Source: Limnohabitans sp. Jir61
GTDB lineage: Bacteria; Pseudomonadota; Gammaproteobacteria; Burkholderiales; Burkholderiaceae_C
Assembly (NCBI RefSeq): GCF_003063545.1
Contig: NZ_NESD01000001.1
Coordinates: 806,001 to 870,000, forward strand
DNA length: 64,000 nucleotides
Direction of reading: 5' to 3'
Part shown: one piece after another, positions 15,749-32,663 of the stretch
Layout: every line of letters starts with the position of its first letter
How positions within the stretch are numbered: the stretch's first letter is position 1
Position numbers and translations under genes: made by a program
The notes under the pieces: model-generated
What the model was told of the DNA's origin: nothing
The model's input: the letters and a program-made list of their open reading frames with translations, nothing else
The model's database searches: none

Positions 15749-18175
15749 ATGCAATTCCCCGAATCCTGGTTGCGCGAATTCTGCAACCCCTCACTCACCA
15801 CCCAAGAGCTGGCCGACACCTTGACCATGGCCGGTTTGGAAGTGGAAGAACTCCAACCCGTTGCGCCGCCTTTCACAGGCATCGTCGTCGGTGAAATCAA
15901 AGAAGCCGTGCAGCACCCAGACGCTGACCGCTTGCGCATTTGCCAAGTGGACGTGGGGCAGGGCGCGTTGCTCAACATCGTGTGCGGCGCACCCAATGCA
16001 CGCGTGGGCATCAAAATTCCATGCGCTACCGTGGGTGCAGAGTTGCCACTCGGTGAAGATGGCAAGCCCTTCAAAATCAAAGTGGGCAAACTGCGTGGCG
16101 TGGAAAGCCAAGGCATGTTGTGCTCGGCCAAAGAACTCAAAATTGCGGACGACAACGGCGGTTTGCTTGAGTTGCCAGCCGATGCACCATTGGGTCAAAA
16201 CATCCGCGAGTACCTGAACCTCGATGACACCTTGATGACATGCAAGCTCACGCCTAACTTGGCGCATTGCTTGAGCGTGTATGGCATTGCCCGCGAAGTG
16301 TCTGCCCTCACAGGTGCACCGTTGAAGGCGCCTACTTTCCCAGCCGTTGCCGCGACTAACGCGGACAAAGTTGCTGTGAATATCAACGCTACTGATTTGT
16401 GTGGCCGTTTCTCTGGCCGCGTGGTGCGTGGCGTGAACACCAAAGCGCAAACACCCGCTTGGATGGTGAACCACTTGGCCCGTTGTGGCCAGCGCAGCGT
16501 GAGCCCCTTGGTCGACATCTCTAACTACGTGATGTTTGAGCTGGGCCGTCCTTCGCACATTTTTGATCTCGACAAAATTCAAGGTGGCTTGGATGTACGT
16601 TGGGGCAAAGCGGGTGAACAACTCAAGCTTTTGAACGGCAACACCGTCACTGTGGACGAGAAAGTGGGCGTCATCGCTGATGCACATCAAGTCGAATCAC
16701 TCGCCGGCATCATGGGTGGCGACGCCACTGCCGTGAGCGACGACACGCAAAACATTTACATCGAAGCTGCCTTCTGGTGGCCCTCGGCCATCGCAGGTCG
16801 CTCACGCCGCTTCAACTTCAGCACCGATGCCGGCCACCGTTTTGAGCGTGGTGTGGATCCTGAGTTGACGGTGGAACACATCGAGCGCATCACCCAGTTG
16901 GTGATTGACATTTGCGGCACACCCAACACCACGGTGGGCCCGATCGACGACCAACGCGTCAACATGCCTGTGGCCAAGCCTGTCACGCTGCGCGTGGCAC
17001 GTGCTGAAAAAGTCATTGGCATGCCGCTGACCCAGCAACGTGTTGCTGATGCTTTGCGTGGCTTGGGCTTGCCCGTGACAGAAGGCGAGGGTGTTGTCAC
17101 CGTGCAGCCACCATCGTTCCGTTTCGATTTGCAAATCGAAGAAGACCTGATCGAAGAAGTGGCACGCATGGTGGGTTACAACAACCTGCCCACCACACCA
17201 CCTTTGGCGCCCATCACGGCCAGCGTGTGCAAAGAGGCGCAGCGCAGCCCGCACGCCTTGCGCCATCACTTGGCCAACTTGGGCTATCAAGAAACCATCA
17301 ACTACAGCTTTGTGGATGAGCGTTGGGAACACGAGTTGGCAGGCAATGCCAACCCCATCAAGCTGCTCAACCCCATCGCCAGCCAAATGAGCGTGATGCG
17401 CTCCACCTTGTTGGGCTCCTTGCTCAACGTGGTGAAGTTCAACGTCGACCGCAAAGCCTCACGCGTGCGCGTGTTTGAAATTGGCCGTGTGTTCCACAAA
17501 GAGGCATCGGTGCAAAACACAGACACCACCGTACAAGGCTTCGACCAGCCCATGCACGTGGCAGGCATTGCCTTTGGCAGCGCTGCGCCTTTGCAATGGG
17601 GCACCAAGGAACAAGCTGCAGACTTCTTCGACGTGAAAGCCGATGTGGAAGCTTTGTTGGCCCCCGCTGTGCCGCAGTTTGAAGCGGCTGAGCATCCAGC
17701 CATGCACCCAGGCCGTTGTGCCAAGGTGTTGGTCAATGGCCAAGCCGTGGGCCATGTAGGTGAGTTGCACCCACGCTGGCGTCAAAGCTGGGAGCTGACC
17801 CAAGCGCCCGTGATGTTTGAACTCTCACTCGATGCCGTGTTGCATCGCGATGTGCCTAAGTCTGCTGGCGTGGCCAAGTTCCCCAACGTGGAACGCGACA
17901 TTGCTGTGATCGTCAAAGACAGCGTCACGCACGCCCAGTTGATGGCTGCGGTGCATGCTGCTAAAACACAAGGCTTGCTGCGCAATGCCGTGTTGTTTGA
18001 TGTGTATCGCCCCAAGACAGAAAGTGCTGCCATGGCGATGGATGAGAAGAGCTTGGCCGTGCGCCTCACGCTCAACAGCGATGAAGCTACTTTGAATGAA
18101 ACGAAAATCGAAGGCGTGGTGCAAGCTGTGCTGGCTGAATTGGCCGCTCAAGTGTCCGCGCGTTTGCGCGCTTGA
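15749..18175 (+). CDS. pheT: Phenylalanyl-tRNA synthetase beta subunit
   Basis: 808 residues, full length for bacterial PheT. In order: N-terminal B1 with the tRNA-binding EMAP-like domain (about 40-150, VVGEIKEAVQHPDADRLRICQVDVG in part), B3/B4 editing domain (GRFSGRVVRGV; SRRFNFSTDAGHRFERGVDPEL), B5 DNA-binding-like fold, an inactive class II core, and a C-terminal ferredoxin-fold anticodon-binding domain (FPNVERDIAVIVKDSV). It partners PheS in charging and editing of tRNA-Phe. Confidence 0.97.
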   Translation: MQFPESWLREFCNPSLTTQELADTLTMAGLEVEELQPVAPPFTGIVVGEIKEAVQHPDADRLRICQVDVGQGALLNIVCGAPNARVGIKIPCATVGAELPLGEDGKPFKIKVGKLRGVESQGMLCSAKELKIADDNGGLLELPADAPLGQNIREYLNLDDTLMTCKLTPNLAHCLSVYGIAREVSALTGAPLKAPTFPAVAATNADKVAVNINATDLCGRFSGRVVRGVNTKAQTPAWMVNHLARCGQRSVSPLVDISNYVMFELGRPSHIFDLDKIQGGLDVRWGKAGEQLKLLNGNTVTVDEKVGVIADAHQVESLAGIMGGDATAVSDDTQNIYIEAAFWWPSAIAGRSRRFNFSTDAGHRFERGVDPELTVEHIERITQLVIDICGTPNTTVGPIDDQRVNMPVAKPVTLRVARAEKVIGMPLTQQRVADALRGLGLPVTEGEGVVTVQPPSFRFDLQIEEDLIEEVARMVGYNNLPTTPPLAPITASVCKEAQRSPHALRHHLANLGYQETINYSFVDERWEHELAGNANPIKLLNPIASQMSVMRSTLLGSLLNVVKFNVDRKASRVRVFEIGRVFHKEASVQNTDTTVQGFDQPMHVAGIAFGSAAPLQWGTKEQAADFFDVKADVEALLAPAVPQFEAAEHPAMHPGRCAKVLVNGQAVGHVGELHPRWRQSWELTQAPVMFELSLDAVLHRDVPKSAGVAKFPNVERDIAVIVKDSVTHAQLMAAVHAAKTQGLLRNAVLFDVYRPKTESAAMAMDEKSLAVRLTLNSDEATLNETKIEGVVQAVLAELAAQVSARLRA

Positions 18176-26656: not shown

Positions 26657-27555
26657 TGAGCGCTGCAAAACCGAAATTGTTTTTCATCGGTGTGGGCAAC
26701 ATGGGTAACCCCATGGCAGCCAACTTGATCAAAGCGGGTTACCCCGTCACCGTGTTTGATGTGACGCGTTCCAAGGCTGATAACTTGATCGCCTTGGGCG
26801 CAACATGGGTCAACAGCTTGGCCGAAGGCGCTGCTGAGGCTGACGTGGTGATGGCTTCTTTGCCGGGCCCCGTGCAAGTGCGTGAAGTCATGTTGGGCGA
26901 GCAGGGCGTGTTGGCCCACGTCAAAGCGGGCGCAACTGTGATTGACACCTCTACCTGTGCTGTGGAGTTGGTGCGCGAATTGGTGGCTTTGGCCAACAGC
27001 AAAGGCGTGGGATTTTTAGAAGCGCCCGTCACCAATGCGGTAGACATGGCGGCCTTGGGTCGCTTGTCTATTTTTGTAGGCGGAGACCCAGCGACCTTTG
27101 AAAAACACAAACCCATCTTCGACGTCATTGGCGAAAAAATCTTTCACGTGGGCGAGCCCGGCAATGGCGCGACCATCAAGCTGCTCACCAACTTGTTGTG
27201 GTTTGTCAGCGCTGCAGCGATTGGCGAAGGTTTGATGCTGGGCGCCAAGGCAGGCATTCCGTTGCACACCGTGTGGGAGGCGATCAAGTCAAGCGCTGGC
27301 AACAGCTGGGTGGCTGAGCATGATGTGCCATCCATCTTTGCCGGTCACTACGACCCCAGTTTTTCGCTGGCCTTGTGCTGCAAAGATTTAGGCCTGATCA
27401 ACGGCATTGCCAAATCACAGGGCTACGATTTGCCCATGGGCGGCATGGCGCAGCAGTTGTTCCAACAAGCCATGGCCACCTACGGCCCAGATGCGGCTGA
27501 GCTGCATGTGGTGAAACTTTTAGAAGAGCGTGTCGGACACATGCTGCGACCATGA
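26653..27555 (+). CDS. 3-hydroxyisobutyrate dehydrogenase family oxidoreductase
   Basis: 300 residues. N-terminal Rossmann domain with FIGVGNMGNPMAANLIKAG, and a C-terminal helical domain with GNGATIKLLTNLLWF carrying the family's catalytic lysine and Asn. DTSTCAVELVREL is in the usual place. The substrate-binding segment, normally DxPVSGGxxGAxxGTL, here reads EAPVTNAVDMAALGRLSIFVGG, so the Ser-Gly-Gly is lost and the substrate is probably not 3-hydroxyisobutyrate or tartronate semialdehyde. NAD(P)-dependent oxidation or reduction of a beta-hydroxyacid or imine is likely. Overlaps neighbours on both sides by 4 bases. Confidence 0.88.
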   Translation: MMSAAKPKLFFIGVGNMGNPMAANLIKAGYPVTVFDVTRSKADNLIALGATWVNSLAEGAAEADVVMASLPGPVQVREVMLGEQGVLAHVKAGATVIDTSTCAVELVRELVALANSKGVGFLEAPVTNAVDMAALGRLSIFVGGDPATFEKHKPIFDVIGEKIFHVGEPGNGATIKLLTNLLWFVSAAAIGEGLMLGAKAGIPLHTVWEAIKSSAGNSWVAEHDVPSIFAGHYDPSFSLALCCKDLGLINGIAKSQGYDLPMGGMAQQLFQQAMATYGPDAAELHVVKLLEERVGHMLRP

Positions 27556-28859
27556 CACACCAATCGCGTTTACTTGCCGAAGCCCATTTGCACATGCCAC
27601 AAGGCGTGGCCGAGAACTACCGCTATTGGGGCGAAAAAGACACGGTGTTCATCGCCAGCGCCAAAGGCTGCATGCTTACCGATGTGGACGGCAAAACCTA
27701 TGTGGACTTTCGCTTAGGCTACGGTCCCATCATCTTGGGTTACCGCGATGAACGCGTGGACAACGCAGTGATTGAGCAAATCACCCAGCGCGGCACCCTC
27801 TCAGGCTTCTCGACCGAGCTCGACACCACGGTGGTCAAGCAAATCAAAGCCATGTGCCCCAACATCGACAAGATGCGCTTTGCCAACTCGGGCACCGAGG
27901 CGGTGATGGGAGCAGTGCGCACTGCGCGCGGCTACACCAAGCGCGACCGCGTGGCGATCGTAGAAGGCTCCTTCCACGGCTTGTATGACGAGATGATGTG
28001 GAAGTCTGACATTGAGCATTGGCAACCGGGCAGCAACGTCGCACCCAAAGTGATTCCCTTTGGCGGGGGCATTCCTGAGCGCAGCCGCGAGTTGTTGAGC
28101 ATCATCAGCCACAACGACTTTGAAGCTCTAGAAAACTTGTTTGCCACGCAAGGCGACACCTTGGCCTGTGTGGTGATTGAGCCCATCATTGGCAATGCGG
28201 GCAGTGTGGCAGCCAGCCAAGAATGGTTGCAGCGTTTGCGTGATCTGTGCACACAGCACGGCACGGTGCTCATCATTGACGAAGTGAAATCAGGTTTTCG
28301 CGTCGCAAAGGGTGGGGCGCAAGAGTTATACGGCATCCATGCCGACCTCACCACCTACGCCAAAGCCATGGGTAATGGTTACCCCGTCGCAGCCTTCGGC
28401 GGCAAAGCGCATGTGATGGATGTGGTGGGCTCGCACCCGGGCGGTGTGGTGCATGGCGGCACGTATACGGCTAACTTGGTGGCGCTTAGTGCGGCACACG
28501 CTACGCTCAAAATTTTGGCCGAGACCAACGCTCAGCAAACCATCAACCATGCAGGTGAACAGATTCAAGAAGTGCTGGGCCGTGTGTTCACAGCTGCGGG
28601 ACTAGAGCATGCATTTGCAGGTCCACCTGCGATGTTTGGTATTCACTTCAGCGCTACCGTGCCCACCAACTACCGGGATTGGCGTGTGACCAACAGCGAG
28701 CTGTATCGCAAGTTTGCGTGGGAGCTGATTGCACGTGGCGTGATGCTCGAGCCAGACTCTCGCGAGCCATGGTTCATTTGCGAAGCGCATCAGCACGTGG
28801 ATTTGGGTTGGCTTGAAGAGGTGGCCACGCAATCATTGCGTGTCGCATTAGCAGTTTGA
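27552..28859 (+). CDS. Class III PLP aminotransferase (GSAM-like)
   Basis: 435 residues. Fold type I class III features: FANSGTEAVMGAVRTARGYT, VAIVEGSFHGLYDEMMW, LIIDEVKSGFRV, and the PLP-lysine segment TTYAKAMGNGYPVAAFGG. It resembles glutamate-1-semialdehyde aminomutase, but the operon context with a dehydrogenase and methyltransferase argues against heme synthesis and for transamination of a small amino or keto compound. Overlaps the dehydrogenase gene by ATGA. Confidence 0.9.
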   Translation: MTHQSRLLAEAHLHMPQGVAENYRYWGEKDTVFIASAKGCMLTDVDGKTYVDFRLGYGPIILGYRDERVDNAVIEQITQRGTLSGFSTELDTTVVKQIKAMCPNIDKMRFANSGTEAVMGAVRTARGYTKRDRVAIVEGSFHGLYDEMMWKSDIEHWQPGSNVAPKVIPFGGGIPERSRELLSIISHNDFEALENLFATQGDTLACVVIEPIIGNAGSVAASQEWLQRLRDLCTQHGTVLIIDEVKSGFRVAKGGAQELYGIHADLTTYAKAMGNGYPVAAFGGKAHVMDVVGSHPGGVVHGGTYTANLVALSAAHATLKILAETNAQQTINHAGEQIQEVLGRVFTAAGLEHAFAGPPAMFGIHFSATVPTNYRDWRVTNSELYRKFAWELIARGVMLEPDSREPWFICEAHQHVDLGWLEEVATQSLRVALAV

Positions 28860-28885
28860 GTCTTCAATTTCTTCATGGAATTCGC

Positions 28886-30466
28886 ATGACCATTGCCCAG
28901 AAAAGCCTCGTACGATTAGCATTCCTACTCGTGGTATTTTTAGTTACAGTTTCAATTGCCAACTATACGCAGGCTCAACTCGAGGAGGATCGTGTTGCGT
29001 TTGTTATTGGTAATTCAGATTACGTAGGTTCAGCAAAGTTAGCGAATCCAACGAATGACTCCAGTGCTATCAGTGATGAATTGAAAAAATTAGGTTTTGA
29101 AACATATCTATTTCAAAATTTAAAGGTAGAGGATGTGTCTGCCCTAAAGCAGCAATTAGAAGCACGGTTAAAGCGAAATAGTCGTTTGATTTTTTACTAC
29201 GCAGGTCATGGCGTTCAGCTTGAATCTAAAAATTACCTTCTTCCGATAAATGCCAGTTTTAAAAATCCAGACACTTTAGCCAATCAAAGTCTTTATTTAG
29301 GAGACATTCTTCAAGCTATTCAAAAATCGAGACCTAGACTTTCTGTCGTTGTTTTAGATGCTTGTAGAGACAACCCCTTTGGTAGTGATAAATCAGGATC
29401 CAGTAGCAAGGGAGGACTTGCGCGAGTAGATCCGCCAGCTTCGACAGTAATTTTTTATGCTACACGACCTGGTGGCACGGCTTCTGACGGTGAAGATAAA
29501 AATGGGTTGTTCACTAAGTCCTTGTTGGCAGAGCTAAAGAAACCAGAAGTCACACTTGAAGTTATTTTTCGCAGAGTCTCTACTTCCGTTTACGAGATTA
29601 GCAAAGGCGATCAAGAGCCTTGGATTGAGGGCGTAATTCGTGAAGAGTTTGTTGTAAACCAAAGCGGTTCCGTTCAGCTTGGAATTGAAAAGCCTGTTGT
29701 TATGGCTGTACATAATTCGGAACAGCTTGCACCTCAGAAGGTCGTGCTTGCTGATCCGATATCTGTCCCAAGTCCTGTCGCTACACCCGAGAAAATTGCT
29801 TTAGCTTCAGACGCTCTAACAAATAGTCATGTTGCAGGTAGATCATTAACCTATGTTCAAGCGCTTGAGAACATCGAAAAAGATATCAAGTCAGGTAACA
29901 CAGAGAGTTCCAGTATTTACTCGTGCGTTAAGGACGTTTGTACATCTTATAAAGATTACGCGCGATCGCTGGTAGATGATGAAAATTTGAATGATCTCAA
30001 AGATAGATTGAGACGCGTTGTAGAAGGGCAAATGAAGGTCTGTATATTTGATCTAGAAAGCAACAAATGTGTGCAAAACTCATTACCAGTAACTATCTAT
30101 AACCCTTTGATGCTTTTTTTTCCAAAAAGTGAAATACAAGGTGTGAAGTTGTTAGAACCTAGTGTTAGCAACAGTGGTGGTTTAAGTTTCAAAGCTGACC
30201 TAATGGCAGGTAGAGGTAGCAGGTCAATACCATGCTCAATATCGGATGGAAAAATAGATTTCCTAAATGAGCGAATTGATATGACTTTGGCGAGAGTGGG
30301 TTGCTTTGGCGTGATGCCTTCCACTGCAAAAATAACATTCGATGTTCTTCTTTGGGACTTTGATAAGTCTGAAATATTGGTGAACTGGAACTTTAATATG
30401 CTCTCAGTTATGGCCTTTGGTCGTGGTGGTGGCACTGCAAAATTGATGTTGCCAAAGAAGGGGTAG
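28886..30466 (+). CDS. Exported caspase-family (peptidase C14) protein, AT-rich
   Basis: 526 residues from the ATG at 28886 (a TTG at 28856 is the upstream alternative). A signal peptide or anchor (LVRLAFLLVVFLVTVSIANYTQAQ) is followed by a caspase p20 domain: RVAFVIGNSDYV, catalytic His108 in YYAGHGVQ and Cys160 in VVLDACRDNPF, then FYATRPGGTASDG. Residues about 330-526 have no family I recognise and contain several cysteines (YSCVKDVCTSY). Base composition is far more AT-rich than its neighbours, suggesting transfer. It lies 26 bases after the aminotransferase stop and 31 bases before a displaced dusA start. Confidence 0.88.
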   Translation: MTIAQKSLVRLAFLLVVFLVTVSIANYTQAQLEEDRVAFVIGNSDYVGSAKLANPTNDSSAISDELKKLGFETYLFQNLKVEDVSALKQQLEARLKRNSRLIFYYAGHGVQLESKNYLLPINASFKNPDTLANQSLYLGDILQAIQKSRPRLSVVVLDACRDNPFGSDKSGSSSKGGLARVDPPASTVIFYATRPGGTASDGEDKNGLFTKSLLAELKKPEVTLEVIFRRVSTSVYEISKGDQEPWIEGVIREEFVVNQSGSVQLGIEKPVVMAVHNSEQLAPQKVVLADPISVPSPVATPEKIALASDALTNSHVAGRSLTYVQALENIEKDIKSGNTESSSIYSCVKDVCTSYKDYARSLVDDENLNDLKDRLRRVVEGQMKVCIFDLESNKCVQNSLPVTIYNPLMLFFPKSEIQGVKLLEPSVSNSGGLSFKADLMAGRGSRSIPCSISDGKIDFLNERIDMTLARVGCFGVMPSTAKITFDVLLWDFDKSEILVNWNFNMLSVMAFGRGGGTAKLMLPKKG

Positions 30467-30497
30467 GTAAAATTCAGGTATTGCTTGCGATAAATAA

Positions 30498-30560
30498 ATG
30501 AAATCAATACCTTATAGCGTTTGGCGCACCTCAGTTGCACCCATGATGGAGTGGACTTGA
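30498..30560 (+). pseudogene. Displaced 5' end of dusA (20 codons)
   Basis: An ATG at 30498 opens a frame ending VAPMMEWT and then TGA. It aligns without gaps to the DusA N-terminus at 31653 (which reads IAPMMDWTD at the same place), with W9, T11 and APMM in register. This is the original or an earlier dusA start left behind when DNA inserted into the gene's 5' end. Confidence 0.75.
30535..30556 (+). repeat. Left attachment core (attL candidate)
   Basis: 22 bases, starting TTGCACCCATGATGG, matching 31690-31711 at 20 of 22 positions (differences at bases 8 and 17). The right copy lies in codons of the intact dusA (IAPMMDWT). Confidence 0.7.
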
Positions 30561-30590
30561 AAGCTAGTATTCATGCGGGTTGCGGGGAAT

Positions 30591-30610
30591 TTGGTGCAAA
30601 TTTGGTGCAC
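30591..30610 (+). repeat. 20-bp direct repeat, left copy
   Basis: TTGGTGCAAATTTGGTGCAC is identical to 31560-31579. It is itself a near-tandem of TTTGGTGCA. TTGGTGCAA is the reverse complement of TTGCACCAA, the start of the dusA core, so it may be a recombinase-binding site. It lies 34 bases inside the left core. Confidence 0.75.
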
Positions 30611-30847
30611 CGAAAAACTCAACTCGATGTATTACTTAGGTTCTTGATTTGTTGCGCCGCATCTCGCACATCAGAGGTAAGTGGCTTTCTAAGCATGGGT
30701 AGGCATTTAGTGCCACTTGCCATACTTCTGCTAAGACACTTGCAACACTTAGCAGTGCCTCGAGCAATCGCCACAACGCAAGCGCCCTAAGCCAACGCGA
30801 TATATGAGTTATTAAGAAAAACAAATTAATTTTTTATAGATAATTTG

Positions 30848-30867
30848 TTTATTAAATATTTAATAAA
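30848..30867. promoter_or_regulatory. 20-bp perfect palindrome before the repressor gene
   Basis: TTTATTAAATATTTAATAAA ends 9 bases before the repressor ATG. A further inverted repeat, CAAATTA (30822-30828) / TAATTTG (30841-30847), lies directly upstream. The arrangement suggests an autoregulatory operator overlapping the repressor's promoter. Confidence 0.55.
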
Positions 30868-30876
30868 GAATAGAAA

Positions 30877-31497
30877 ATGTCAAAAACACTAGCGCAACGC
30901 TTGAAAGCGGCTCGTGGCGCAATGAGTCCTACAGTTACTCAGCGCGACGTTGCCAAAAAATTCAACGTCACCGCTGGCAGCGTGTCTCTGTGGGAATCAG
31001 GTAGCACCGAGCCAAACAGCGAGGTTTTGGCCGAACTGGCCCGCACCTACAAAGTGTCCGTTGATTGGCTGGTCGGCTTAGAAGACCGCCCGCCCGTGGC
31101 CGTGTCGCACAACATCCAGATCAACACCGTGCCTGTGGTTGCACCATCTGCCCTAGGCCGCTGGAAGCTGGACGCGCCCATGGACCGCCTGCAAACACTC
31201 GTAGCCTACACAACAGGCACGGCTGCGGCCATGCTGGTGTCCAGTGACGCCCTAAGTAGTGCGTGCCCCACGGGTTGCTATGTGGTGGTCAGCAAGGGCC
31301 ACAAAGCGAATGAGGGCAGCATTGTGATGGCTGTTGTGGGTGACGCTGGCGAACCCATCCTGCGCCGACTTATCAAGGATGGCGGGGAGTTCATGCTGAT
31401 CGCAGACGATGCACGCTGGTCAACTGTGCGCATCAATGACGGTGTACGGATCATTGGGACTGTGACTGAAATAGACATTAAGCGCCGCTTAATATAA
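30877..31497 (+). CDS. Phage-type repressor: XRE helix-turn-helix plus S24-like domain
   Basis: 206 residues. HTH_XRE at about 4-68 (QRDVAKKFNVTAGSVSLWESG, LARTYKVSVDWLVGLEDR), a linker, and a LexA/CI-like S24 domain (about 120-206: CPTGCYVVVSKG, ANEGSIVMAVVGD, GEPILRRLIKDGGEFML). By eye, the catalytic Ser of the GxSM motif aligns with Ala (VSSDAL) and the catalytic Lys of the TVKRL motif aligns with Arg (ILRRL), so self-cleavage may be lost. GC matches the chromosome better than its upstream region. No other phage gene is near. Confidence 0.88.
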   Translation: MSKTLAQRLKAARGAMSPTVTQRDVAKKFNVTAGSVSLWESGSTEPNSEVLAELARTYKVSVDWLVGLEDRPPVAVSHNIQINTVPVVAPSALGRWKLDAPMDRLQTLVAYTTGTAAAMLVSSDALSSACPTGCYVVVSKGHKANEGSIVMAVVGDAGEPILRRLIKDGGEFMLIADDARWSTVRINDGVRIIGTVTEIDIKRRLI

Positions 31498-31559
31498 TTC
31501 TTAGATCCATTGGGCTGCATCAACGATACCTATTTGTGAACGATGCTAAGACCCGCAAC

Positions 31560-31579
31560 TTGGTGCAAATTTGGTGCAC
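31560..31579 (+). repeat. 20-bp direct repeat, right copy
   Basis: Identical to 30591-30610 and in the same orientation, 110 bases before the right core. Together the two copies frame the repressor gene. Confidence 0.75.
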
Positions 31580-31584
31580 TAGAG

Positions 31585-31614
31585 TTGATTTTTACGGGTA
31601 TGCAGAAGTAATGT
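31585..31614 (+). promoter_or_regulatory. Candidate promoter of dusA supplied by the element
   Basis: TTGATT (31585-31590) and TAATGT (31609-31614) are separated by 18 bases and lie about 40 bases before the dusA ATG. Matches to consensus are moderate. Confidence 0.35.
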
Positions 31615-31652
31615 TAAGTAGAACTCAACGGGAACCTACAGAGGGAAACGCT

Positions 31653-32663
31653 ATGACTTCAACGAGAAATTCTCGATGGAAAACCGCTATTGCACCAATG
31701 ATGGACTGGACCGATCGCCACTGCCGCTATTTCCACCGCCTGCTCAGCCGCAATACCTTGCTCTACACAGAGATGGTCACCACCGGTGCGCTGCGTCATG
31801 GCGATACGCAGCGGCATTTGCGCTTCAACGCCGAAGAGCATCCTGTTGCTTTGCAATTAGGCGGCAGCGACGCGGCTGATTTGGCGCACGGTGCAAAGTT
31901 GGGCGAGCAATGGGGCTACAACGAAATCAACCTCAACTGCGGTTGCCCGTCTGACCGCGTGCAGCGCGGCGCTTTTGGTGCGTGTTTGATGAACGAACCG
32001 CAAACCGTGGCCGATGGTGTGAAAGCCATGATGGATGTGGTGAGCATTCCTGTCACCGTCAAGCACCGCATTGGCATTGACCGCATTGAGAGCTACGACT
32101 TTGTGCGTGACTTTGTGGGCACCGTCAGCGATGCGGGCTGCAAGGTGTTCGTCGTTCATGCACGCAATGCGTGGCTCGATGGTTTGAGCCCCAAAGAAAA
32201 CCGAGAAATTCCGCCGTTGCGCTACGAGTTGGGTTACCAGCTGAAAAAAGATTTTCCCAATTTGGTGATTGTCATCAACGGCGGCATCACCACCAACGTG
32301 CAAATGGCCGAGCACTTACAGCATGTCGATGGTGTGATGCTGGGGCGCGAGGCGTATTACCGCCCGTGGCTTATGACGACGTGGGATGCCGAGTTTTACA
32401 ACGACCCGCATGAGACTCTTAGCCGCGAAGCGGTGGAGGAGGCGATGGTCGCTTACATGGAGCGTGCCTACGCCGAAGATGGCTGCCCTTGGTACCCGAT
32501 TGCGCGACACATGCTGGGCTTGTTCCATGGTCAACGCGGTGCACGCTTGTGGCGACAGACTTGGAGCAACCACAAGCTCAAGCCATTGCCGCCGCGAGAG
32601 GTCTTAAAGCTGGCACGCGTTGCTTTAGCCCTAGGCGCCGAGAAGCCTGTCGATGCCCTCTGA
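31653..32663 (+). CDS. dusA: tRNA-dihydrouridine(20/20a) synthase DusA
   Basis: 336 residues from the ATG at 31653, preceded by GAGGGAAAC; the frame is open further upstream but that part belongs to the element. TIM barrel with AIAPMMDWTDRHCR, TEMVTTGA, LQLGGSD, NLNCGCPSDRVQ, and catalytic Cys111 in GACLMNEP. FMN-dependent reduction of uridine 20/20a in tRNA D loops. The first codons were supplied by the inserted DNA (see the left duplicate), yet the gene is intact. It overlaps the DMT gene by 11 bases. Confidence 0.96.
   Translation: MTSTRNSRWKTAIAPMMDWTDRHCRYFHRLLSRNTLLYTEMVTTGALRHGDTQRHLRFNAEEHPVALQLGGSDAADLAHGAKLGEQWGYNEINLNCGCPSDRVQRGAFGACLMNEPQTVADGVKAMMDVVSIPVTVKHRIGIDRIESYDFVRDFVGTVSDAGCKVFVVHARNAWLDGLSPKENREIPPLRYELGYQLKKDFPNLVIVINGGITTNVQMAEHLQHVDGVMLGREAYYRPWLMTTWDAEFYNDPHETLSREAVEEAMVAYMERAYAEDGCPWYPIARHMLGLFHGQRGARLWRQTWSNHKLKPLPPREVLKLARVALALGAEKPVDAL
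31690..31711 (+). repeat. Right attachment core inside dusA (attR candidate)
   Basis: 22 bases beginning TTGCACCAATGATGG, within dusA codons 13-20. Matches the left core at 30535-30556 with two differences. Confidence 0.7.

What the first reader, a model, noticed from the sequence alone, without database searches (positions are those of the whole stretch)
30498..31711. Shrunken dusA-integrated element with displaced dusA start
The first 20 codons of a dusA gene (30498-30560, ending VAPMMEWT-stop) sit about 1.15 kb upstream of the intact dusA start (31653), with a 22-base core shared at 20 of 22 positions. dusA 5' ends are an established target of a group of tyrosine-recombinase islands and prophages, and this is the layout that integration leaves. 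Here almost everything except a repressor is gone. Seen: the duplication and alignment. Inference: the deletion history.
Basis: partly seen in the sequence, partly recalled or inferred. Interest (0 to 1): 0.8.

Follow-up and report, generated by a model that had tools for sequence, protein, structure and literature searches.

The report
Tiny phage remnant inside dusA
A 1.15-kilobase leftover of a virus that once inserted itself into the start of the bacterial dusA gene still carries both insertion ends and one intact repressor gene but has lost its insertion enzyme; it is mostly an ordinary relic, with a weak hint that the repressor might still influence dusA.

Summary
In detail: a dusA start segment (30498-30560) lies 1155 bp upstream of the intact dusA start (31653), with a 22-base core alike at 20 positions. 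Two IMG/VR phage contigs carry the undivided attP, with an integrase gene beside one arm and an excisionase-like gene beside the other; both window ends align to it. The window's repressor is 52% identical to the one in the first of these contigs. So the insert is a drastically reduced dusA prophage: attL, excisionase stub, intact repressor, attR; the integrase is gone. In five relatives the neighbouring aminotransferase gene lies directly before dusA, with no insert and no second segment. The left segment fits another dusA right end (G038; 82% over 57 bp) better than native starts, so it is probably left from an older element. The repressor family lacks the S24 Ser-Lys pair. A motif found upstream of the phage repressor genes has its best window match just before the new dusA start, but no rightward promoter was detected there. 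This is a known kind in an unusually reduced form; mobility was not shown.

The parts
30489..30545 (+). Upstream part of the left dusA segment, resembling the dusA start of relative G038; probable right end of an older dusA element
   Evidence: 82% over query 23-79 (57 bp), E 1.5e-8 (G038); six other relatives' dusA starts match only 24-26 bp of it (the coding part)
30498..30560 (+). Left dusA 5' segment: 20 codons then stop
30535..30556 (+). attL core (22 bp)
30588..30610 (+). Left arm-like site, two 11-bp units AATTTGGTGCA
   Evidence: homologous position in phage attP
30619..30774 (-). 3' stub of a prtN/rdfN-like (excisionase-like) gene, N-terminal part missing
   Evidence: Local DNA match at about 30656-30687 to the attP-left side of L080 and L083, 0 of 1000 shuffles as high for each (alignment); KPLTSDVRDAAQQI in the stub beside KPLTADVRDVAEAL in L083; frame closed upstream by a stop; no Pfam or PHROGs hit on its own
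30791..30876 (.). AT-rich stretch (17% GC) before the repressor, with palindrome TTTATTAAATATTTAATAAA at 30848-30867
30877..31497 (+). Intact CI/S24-like repressor frame, 206 aa; catalytic Ser and Lys positions read Ala and Arg
31533..31546 (-). Possible trace of the first integrase codons (Ala-Ser-Phe-Thr), start codon lost
   Evidence: alignment, place: 36 of 1000 shuffles as high against L083, 864 of 1000 against L080; suggestive only
31557..31579 (+). Right arm-like site
   Evidence: homologous position in phage attP
31613..31629 (.). Operator-like palindrome GTTAAGTAGAACTCAAC, 11 of 12 to the phage motif
31653..32663 (+). dusA with element-supplied start codon and first codons
31690..31711 (+). 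attR core (22 bp)

Best explanation
The insert is a heavily reduced prophage of a dusA-targeting temperate phage. The phage integrase recombined attP with the dusA 5' end, leaving the previous dusA start upstream (attL) and giving dusA a new start codon and first codons (attR). Later losses and at least one rearrangement removed nearly all of the phage, leaving the two ends, a 3' stub of the excisionase-like gene and an intact repressor gene. The element cannot move by itself, and no similar integrase was seen among this genome's integrase hits. It sits in tandem behind the leftover of an older dusA element. Shown: both ends, homology to phage attP and repressor, the missing integrase, empty relatives. 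Inferred: order of events, loss of mobility, the older element. The repressor, if expressed, would give immunity to phages with the same operators; that too is inference.
For: Core and arm repeats far above chance. Five relatives empty. attP of two phage contigs aligns on both sides: of 8 query-target tests, 5 had 0, one had 1, one had 36 and one had 864 of 1000 shuffles as high; the last two are the integrase-stub test. Integrase beside both attPs (L080: Pfam integrase; L083: 74% identical to it); the small gene on the other side has weak excisionase/PrtN hits in L083 (the L080 copy was not scanned). Repressor 52% identical over 203 aa to that of record G477; 30 related loci in viral contigs, best 56%. 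Of 10 ORFs of that contig scanned, 8 match phage protein families (DarB-like, primase, helicase, exonuclease and others). A second repressor-bearing record (G486, 55%) also has a dusA core with an integrase relative and a PrtN-family gene. A full-length prophage in dusA with the same layout (G501, cores 61.7 kb apart) is a positive comparator. Published features match: integrase at dusA, displaced original 5' end, prtN homologue in 60 of 94 islands (PMC4482086, sections 15, 16, 18 read); PrtN-like RdfN is the excision factor (PMC8409611, passages incl. abstract).
Against: The repressor is on the opposite strand, relative to the ends, compared with both phage records where it can be checked (G477, G486), so simple internal deletion is not enough. 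It is more distant from all 14 phage copies aligned (39-56%) than the main-group phages are from each other (54-89%). It was found in no other of the 84 genus genomes searched, so no intermediate form was seen. The integrase stub is not significant against L080. The one terminase family tried (PF03354) was found in 0 of 4 of these phage records, so virion genes were not shown; their being viral rests on IMG/VR and.
Confidence: 0.87

Rival explanations
1. A functional mini-element, comparable with a cis-mobilizable element: both att sites are kept, and an incoming phage of the same type could excise or move it in trans; the repressor is its cargo (immunity).
For: Both cores and both arm sites kept; repressor frame intact while the excisionase gene is broken; literature describes elements that lost integration and transfer genes but kept attL and attR (PMC5704250, one passage).
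Against: The repressor was found in 1 of 84 genus genomes; the double-unit arm pattern (up to 1 mismatch) occurs in 3 of 399 family genomes, and neither of the other two has dusA beside it; of 11 integrase hits in this genome only 1 aligns with the phage integrases compared, at 23-27% identity.
Confidence: 0.12
2. Domesticated control unit: the retained repressor binds the operator-like palindrome 31613-31629 and regulates dusA from an element-supplied promoter.
For: GTTGAG-N5-CTCAAC at 9 of 12 or better within 250 bp upstream of the repressor gene in 24 of 26 phage loci examined, at 10 or better in 22 of 26; density at 10 or better is 24 in 6.5 kb versus 88 in 328 kb elsewhere. Best match in the 64-kb window is 31613-31629, 23 bp before the dusA ATG; expectation in that 73-bp stretch about 1e-4, 2 of 5000 local shuffles. 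Homologous sites in L080 and L083 attP (9 and 10 of 12).
Against: A sigma-70-type scan of 30440-31740 found 2 promoter-like sites, both leftward (one at 31617-31588), no rightward one before dusA or the repressor, and no more than shuffles give (mean 1.1). Window-wide the motif is not enriched (2 found at up to 2 mismatches, 2.9 expected). The motif was defined after seeing these sequences, and the 26 loci include near-copies. In the phages the site may serve the leftward integrase promoter and be a relic here. The window repressor's recognition helix differs from the phages', and its own upstream region has no good copy (only ATTAAGAAAAACAAATT).
Confidence: 0.12
3. No mobile element: a partial duplication of the dusA start with a repressor gene inserted by chance.
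For: No integrase present.
Against: Arms, excisionase stub, repressor and both end regions match one phage group; the new dusA start is phage-type.
Confidence: 0.02

Closest known systems
dusA-specific genomic islands and prophages (Farrugia et al. 2015, PMC4482086)
   Same: Insertion at the dusA 5' end, displaced original start upstream, element-supplied new start, imperfect direct repeats of about 21 bp, prtN/rdfN-like gene at the left end (here a stub)
   Different: No integrase (common to all 94 surveyed islands); about 1.15 kb against 4758 to 184808 bp in that survey, which rests on integrase genes and could not have found this form
dusA phage contigs IMGVR_UViG_3300022745_000034 and IMGVR_UViG_3300019776_000294 (L080, L083)
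   Same: Both end sequences, arms, core and excisionase region; repressor 52% identical in the first
   Different: Contigs of 63.9 and 46.8 kb with integrase and an open excisionase-like gene; in the first the repressor is on the other strand relative to attP; no S24 hit in the second
CIME (cis-mobilizable element) and tandems with CIMEs (passage in PMC5704250)
   Same: att-flanked decayed element in tandem with another at one target gene
   Different: Described there for decayed conjugative or mobilizable elements; here the source looks like a phage, and mobilization is untested
Lambdoid CI / 434-type S24 repressors
   Same: HTH plus S24-like domain over the full length, 29-30% identity to 434 CI
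   Different: Catalytic Ser reads Ala in 13 of 15 aligned members and Lys reads Arg in 15 of 15, so self-cleavage is not expected

Membership tests
dusA-specific genomic islands/prophages | Insertion at the conserved dusA 5' site with imperfect direct repeats | tested here: met
dusA-specific genomic islands/prophages | Element supplies a new dusA 5' end, old one left upstream | tested here: met
   empty relatives
dusA-specific genomic islands/prophages | dusA-associated integrase gene (the one universal feature in PMC4482086) | tested here: not met
   No integrase-like ORF in the insert and no integrase-family hit there in the genome scan; at most a trace of its first codons. Filed as derived from, not as a full member
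dusA-specific genomic islands/prophages | prtN/rdfN homologue (60 of 94) | tested here: inconclusive
   3' stub by DNA alignment; no profile hit
dusA-specific genomic islands/prophages | Excision to a circular form | not testable with these tools
   Needs PCR on DNA
Cis-mobilizable element (CIME) | attL and attR kept, integration genes lost | tested here: met
Cis-mobilizable element (CIME) | Derived from a conjugative or mobilizable element | tested here: inconclusive
   Closest sources are classed as viral by IMG/VR and one has phage-type genes; virion genes were not shown and transfer genes were not searched for
S24 self-cleaving CI/LexA-type repressor | Ser-Lys catalytic dyad | tested here: not met
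   alignment with 434 CI (L125); the catalytic positions of 434/lambda CI are recalled

The most novel reading that the evidence does not exclude
Probability: 0.1. Interest if true: 0.6.

Novelty: new variant of a known kind. Interest (0 to 1): 0.35.

Why it matters
A survey of dusA islands that starts from the integrase misses forms like this one. The locus suggests layered occupation of dusA, with remains of two different element classes, and offers a small system to ask whether a phage repressor can gain control of the gene whose start the phage has replaced. As a remnant it is otherwise ordinary.

Tried and rejected
Repressor search in viral contigs with the single sequence found no relative; the two-sequence alignment then found 30 loci. 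Class-B arm-plus-core pattern in viral contigs: 0, so the source of the older element is not identified. Genome-collection scan for arm plus core: 1 locus (L082, a MAG contig titled Alphaproteobacteria, with an integrase-like frame, read by eye, beside dusA). The arm pattern is not dusA-specific: in G115 two arms 27 kb apart flank an integrase (L050) and no dusA was hit there (that the target is a tRNA gene is my reading of the sequence, no tRNA scan was run). In G167 the single arm lies about 3.6 kb from a more distant Dus-family gene (33%) and about 70 kb from the nearest integrase hit on its contig. A role for this genome's own integrases was checked only against the 11 loci that fetched. 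'Left segment is the native dusA start' was judged less likely because its upstream part fits G038 and not the native starts. Reading the integrase stub as certain was rejected. Search of four phage records for one terminase family (PF03354): 0 of 4 (the control rang in 3 of 14 genomes).

Corrections to my notes: says the motif was in 23 of 26 loci (recount: 24 of 26 at 9 or better, 22 of 26 at 10 or better), 24 bp before the ATG (23) and the stub at 31524-31541 (31533-31546). Notes 14 and 24 give the gap in empty relatives as 84 bp; it is 58-74 bp.

Literature: for 'dusA, prophage, repressor, operator' (7 papers) and 'dusA, prophage, remnant, tandem' (3 papers) no listed title reports repressor control of dusA; the words repressor and operator do not occur in the main text of PMC8409611. 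Apart from the passages and sections named, these papers were not read.

Full report
Observation. The coordinates are right. A dusA start of 20 codons ending in a stop lies at 30498-30560 and the intact dusA starts at 31653. The 22-base core agrees at 20 of 22 positions, and a pattern of it with up to 3 mismatches matches only these two places in the window (shuffle mean 0.01). Beyond the report, two 23-bp direct repeats, each of two 11-bp units, lie just inside both ends (30588-30610 and 31557-31579). They look like the arm sites of a tyrosine recombinase; binding is not shown.

Empty sites. A search of 84 genomes of the genus found dusA in 76 at E 1e-60 or better. Of the 29 relatives' loci fetched there, five (G055, G061, G066, G023, G074) have the aminotransferase gene of window 27552-28859 directly before dusA, without caspase gene, repressor or second dusA segment, with 58-74 bp between stop and ATG.

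Source. A pattern of arm plus core, with a gap like that in the window, found one contig in IMG/VR and, with slight degeneracy, a second. In both, the core is flanked on one side by an arm and an integrase gene and on the other by a second arm-like stretch and a small excisionase-like gene. The first integrase has a Pfam integrase hit and the second is 74% identical to it. The small gene of the second contig has weak HTH, PrtN and excisionase hits, below the Pfam cut-offs; that of the first was not scanned. This is attP. The window's right end aligns with the integrase side and its left end with the excisionase side. In shuffle tests (4 stretches against 2 contigs, 1000 shuffles each) the left inner stretch had 0 and 0 as high, the left core-to-arm stretch 0 and 1, the right arm-to-core stretch 0 and 0, and the integrase-stub stretch 864 and 36. 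The last is thus only suggestive. The excisionase remnant keeps its 3' part; its frame is closed by a stop before the N-terminal part.

Are the contigs phages? IMG/VR classes them so. Of 10 ORFs of the first contig scanned, 8 match phage protein families, among them DarB-like, primase, helicase, exonuclease and ssDNA-annealing families. One terminase family searched in four records gave 0 of 4. Virion genes were thus not shown.

Repressor. The 206-aa protein has HTH and S24-like domains. It is 52% identical over 203 residues to the repressor in the contig that holds the first attP. An alignment search found 30 related loci in viral contigs, best 56%. Of 25 records searched for the core, 4 hold it: 2 of the 23 repressor-bearing ones (G477, G486) and the two added for other reasons (G478, the second attP contig, and G501); many of the records are short fragments. 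G486 has a relative of the integrase and a PrtN-family gene around its core. G501 is a full-length prophage in dusA, cores 61.7 kb apart, with integrase at one end and a PrtN-like gene at the other. In an alignment of the window repressor and 14 of the 30 relatives with phage 434 CI, the catalytic Ser position reads Ala in 13 of 15 and the Lys position reads Arg in 15 of 15, so SOS self-cleavage is not expected. The catalytic assignment for 434 and lambda CI is recalled; the solved structures matched by sequence cover only the HTH part.

History. The left segment, including 9 bp before its ATG, is 82% identical over 57 bp to the dusA start of G038 (E 1.5e-8), whereas the six next dusA starts match only 24-26 bp, the coding part. 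The G038 start resembles, by eye, those of G045, G075 and G076. Part of this group carries a different arm type (class B): flags it in 3 of the 40 starts it read (G076, G033, G064), from 47 loci given; 7 loci were missed by the regular expression, among them G045, whose arms are visible. Class A arms occur in 1 of those 40, the window's own. G038 itself shows no arms. So the window's dusA was probably hit first by a class B element, of which at most about 60 bp are recognisable, and then by the class A phage. In both phage records where it can be compared, the repressor is on the same strand as integrase and excisionase gene; in the window it is on the other strand. A rearrangement, or a source phage with another layout, is needed besides deletion.

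Operator idea. Upstream of the repressor, 24 of 26 phage loci examined (the four partial matches of the 30 were left out) have a GTTGAG-N5-CTCAAC-like palindrome at 9 of 12 or better, 22 at 10 or better. In the window the best match (11 of 12) is 31613-31629, between the right arm and the new dusA start; 2 of 5000 local shuffles reach this. Homologous sites are in both attPs. Against it: the promoter scan found no rightward sigma-70-type site before dusA or the repressor, only two leftward ones, not above shuffles; the motif is not enriched in the window as a whole; it was framed after looking; several loci are near-copies; and the window repressor's own upstream region lacks a good copy. It is a lead, not a result. 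On rechecking I had left out the promoter scan; for that reason I lowered this rival from 0.15 to 0.12 and the novel case from 0.12 to 0.10. In published work a dusA element in Vibrio supplied a weaker promoter to dusA (PMC8409611, passages incl. abstract).

Mobility. No integrase lies in the insert. Of 11 integrase hits in this genome, only one aligns with the five integrases compared, at 23-27% identity. The repressor was found in 1 of 84 genus genomes. The element is best seen as immobile at present.

Comparison. It derives from the dusA-specific islands and prophages (PMC4482086, abstract, passages and sections 15, 16 and 18 read) but fails their one universal feature, the integrase, and at about 1.15 kb is smaller than the 4758-bp minimum of that survey. 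It resembles a cis-mobilizable element in a tandem (PMC5704250, one passage), from what looks like a phage source.

Noticed in passing
window 28886-30466: Caspase-like (Peptidase C14) gene directly after the aminotransferase stop codon, with a hydrophobic N-terminus (my reading); absent from the five empty relatives; 41% GC against 54.5% for the window. 11 of 84 genus genomes, the window's own included, have a match at E 1e-20 or better.
   Followed up: partly
window 28860-28873 and G038 contig C110 (L071 2957): GTCTTCAATTTCTT stands right after the aminotransferase stop in the window and about 170 bp upstream of the dusA core in G038; cause unknown.
   Followed up: no
L070 (G075:C5:1-19500): Upstream of dusA: a caspase-like gene (33%) and a 1375-aa protein with TIR-like and repeat-like features (my reading), a possible defence region at the same place.
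   Followed up: no
L069 (G033:C29), 15900-18144: About 2.2 kb without an integrase hit between a phaB-like gene (my reading) and dusA, with class B arms before dusA: another integrase-less occupied dusA site.
   Followed up: partly
L049/L050 (G115:C5, 576-603 kb): Two copies of the same arm motif 27 kb apart with an integrase at one end, at a target other than dusA; other gene content not analysed.
   Followed up: partly
L051 (G167:C17): Single arm motif about 3.6 kb from a more distant Dus-family gene.
   Followed up: no
G083 contigs C142 and C48: Two dusA matches in one genome; duplication or assembly artefact.
   Followed up: no
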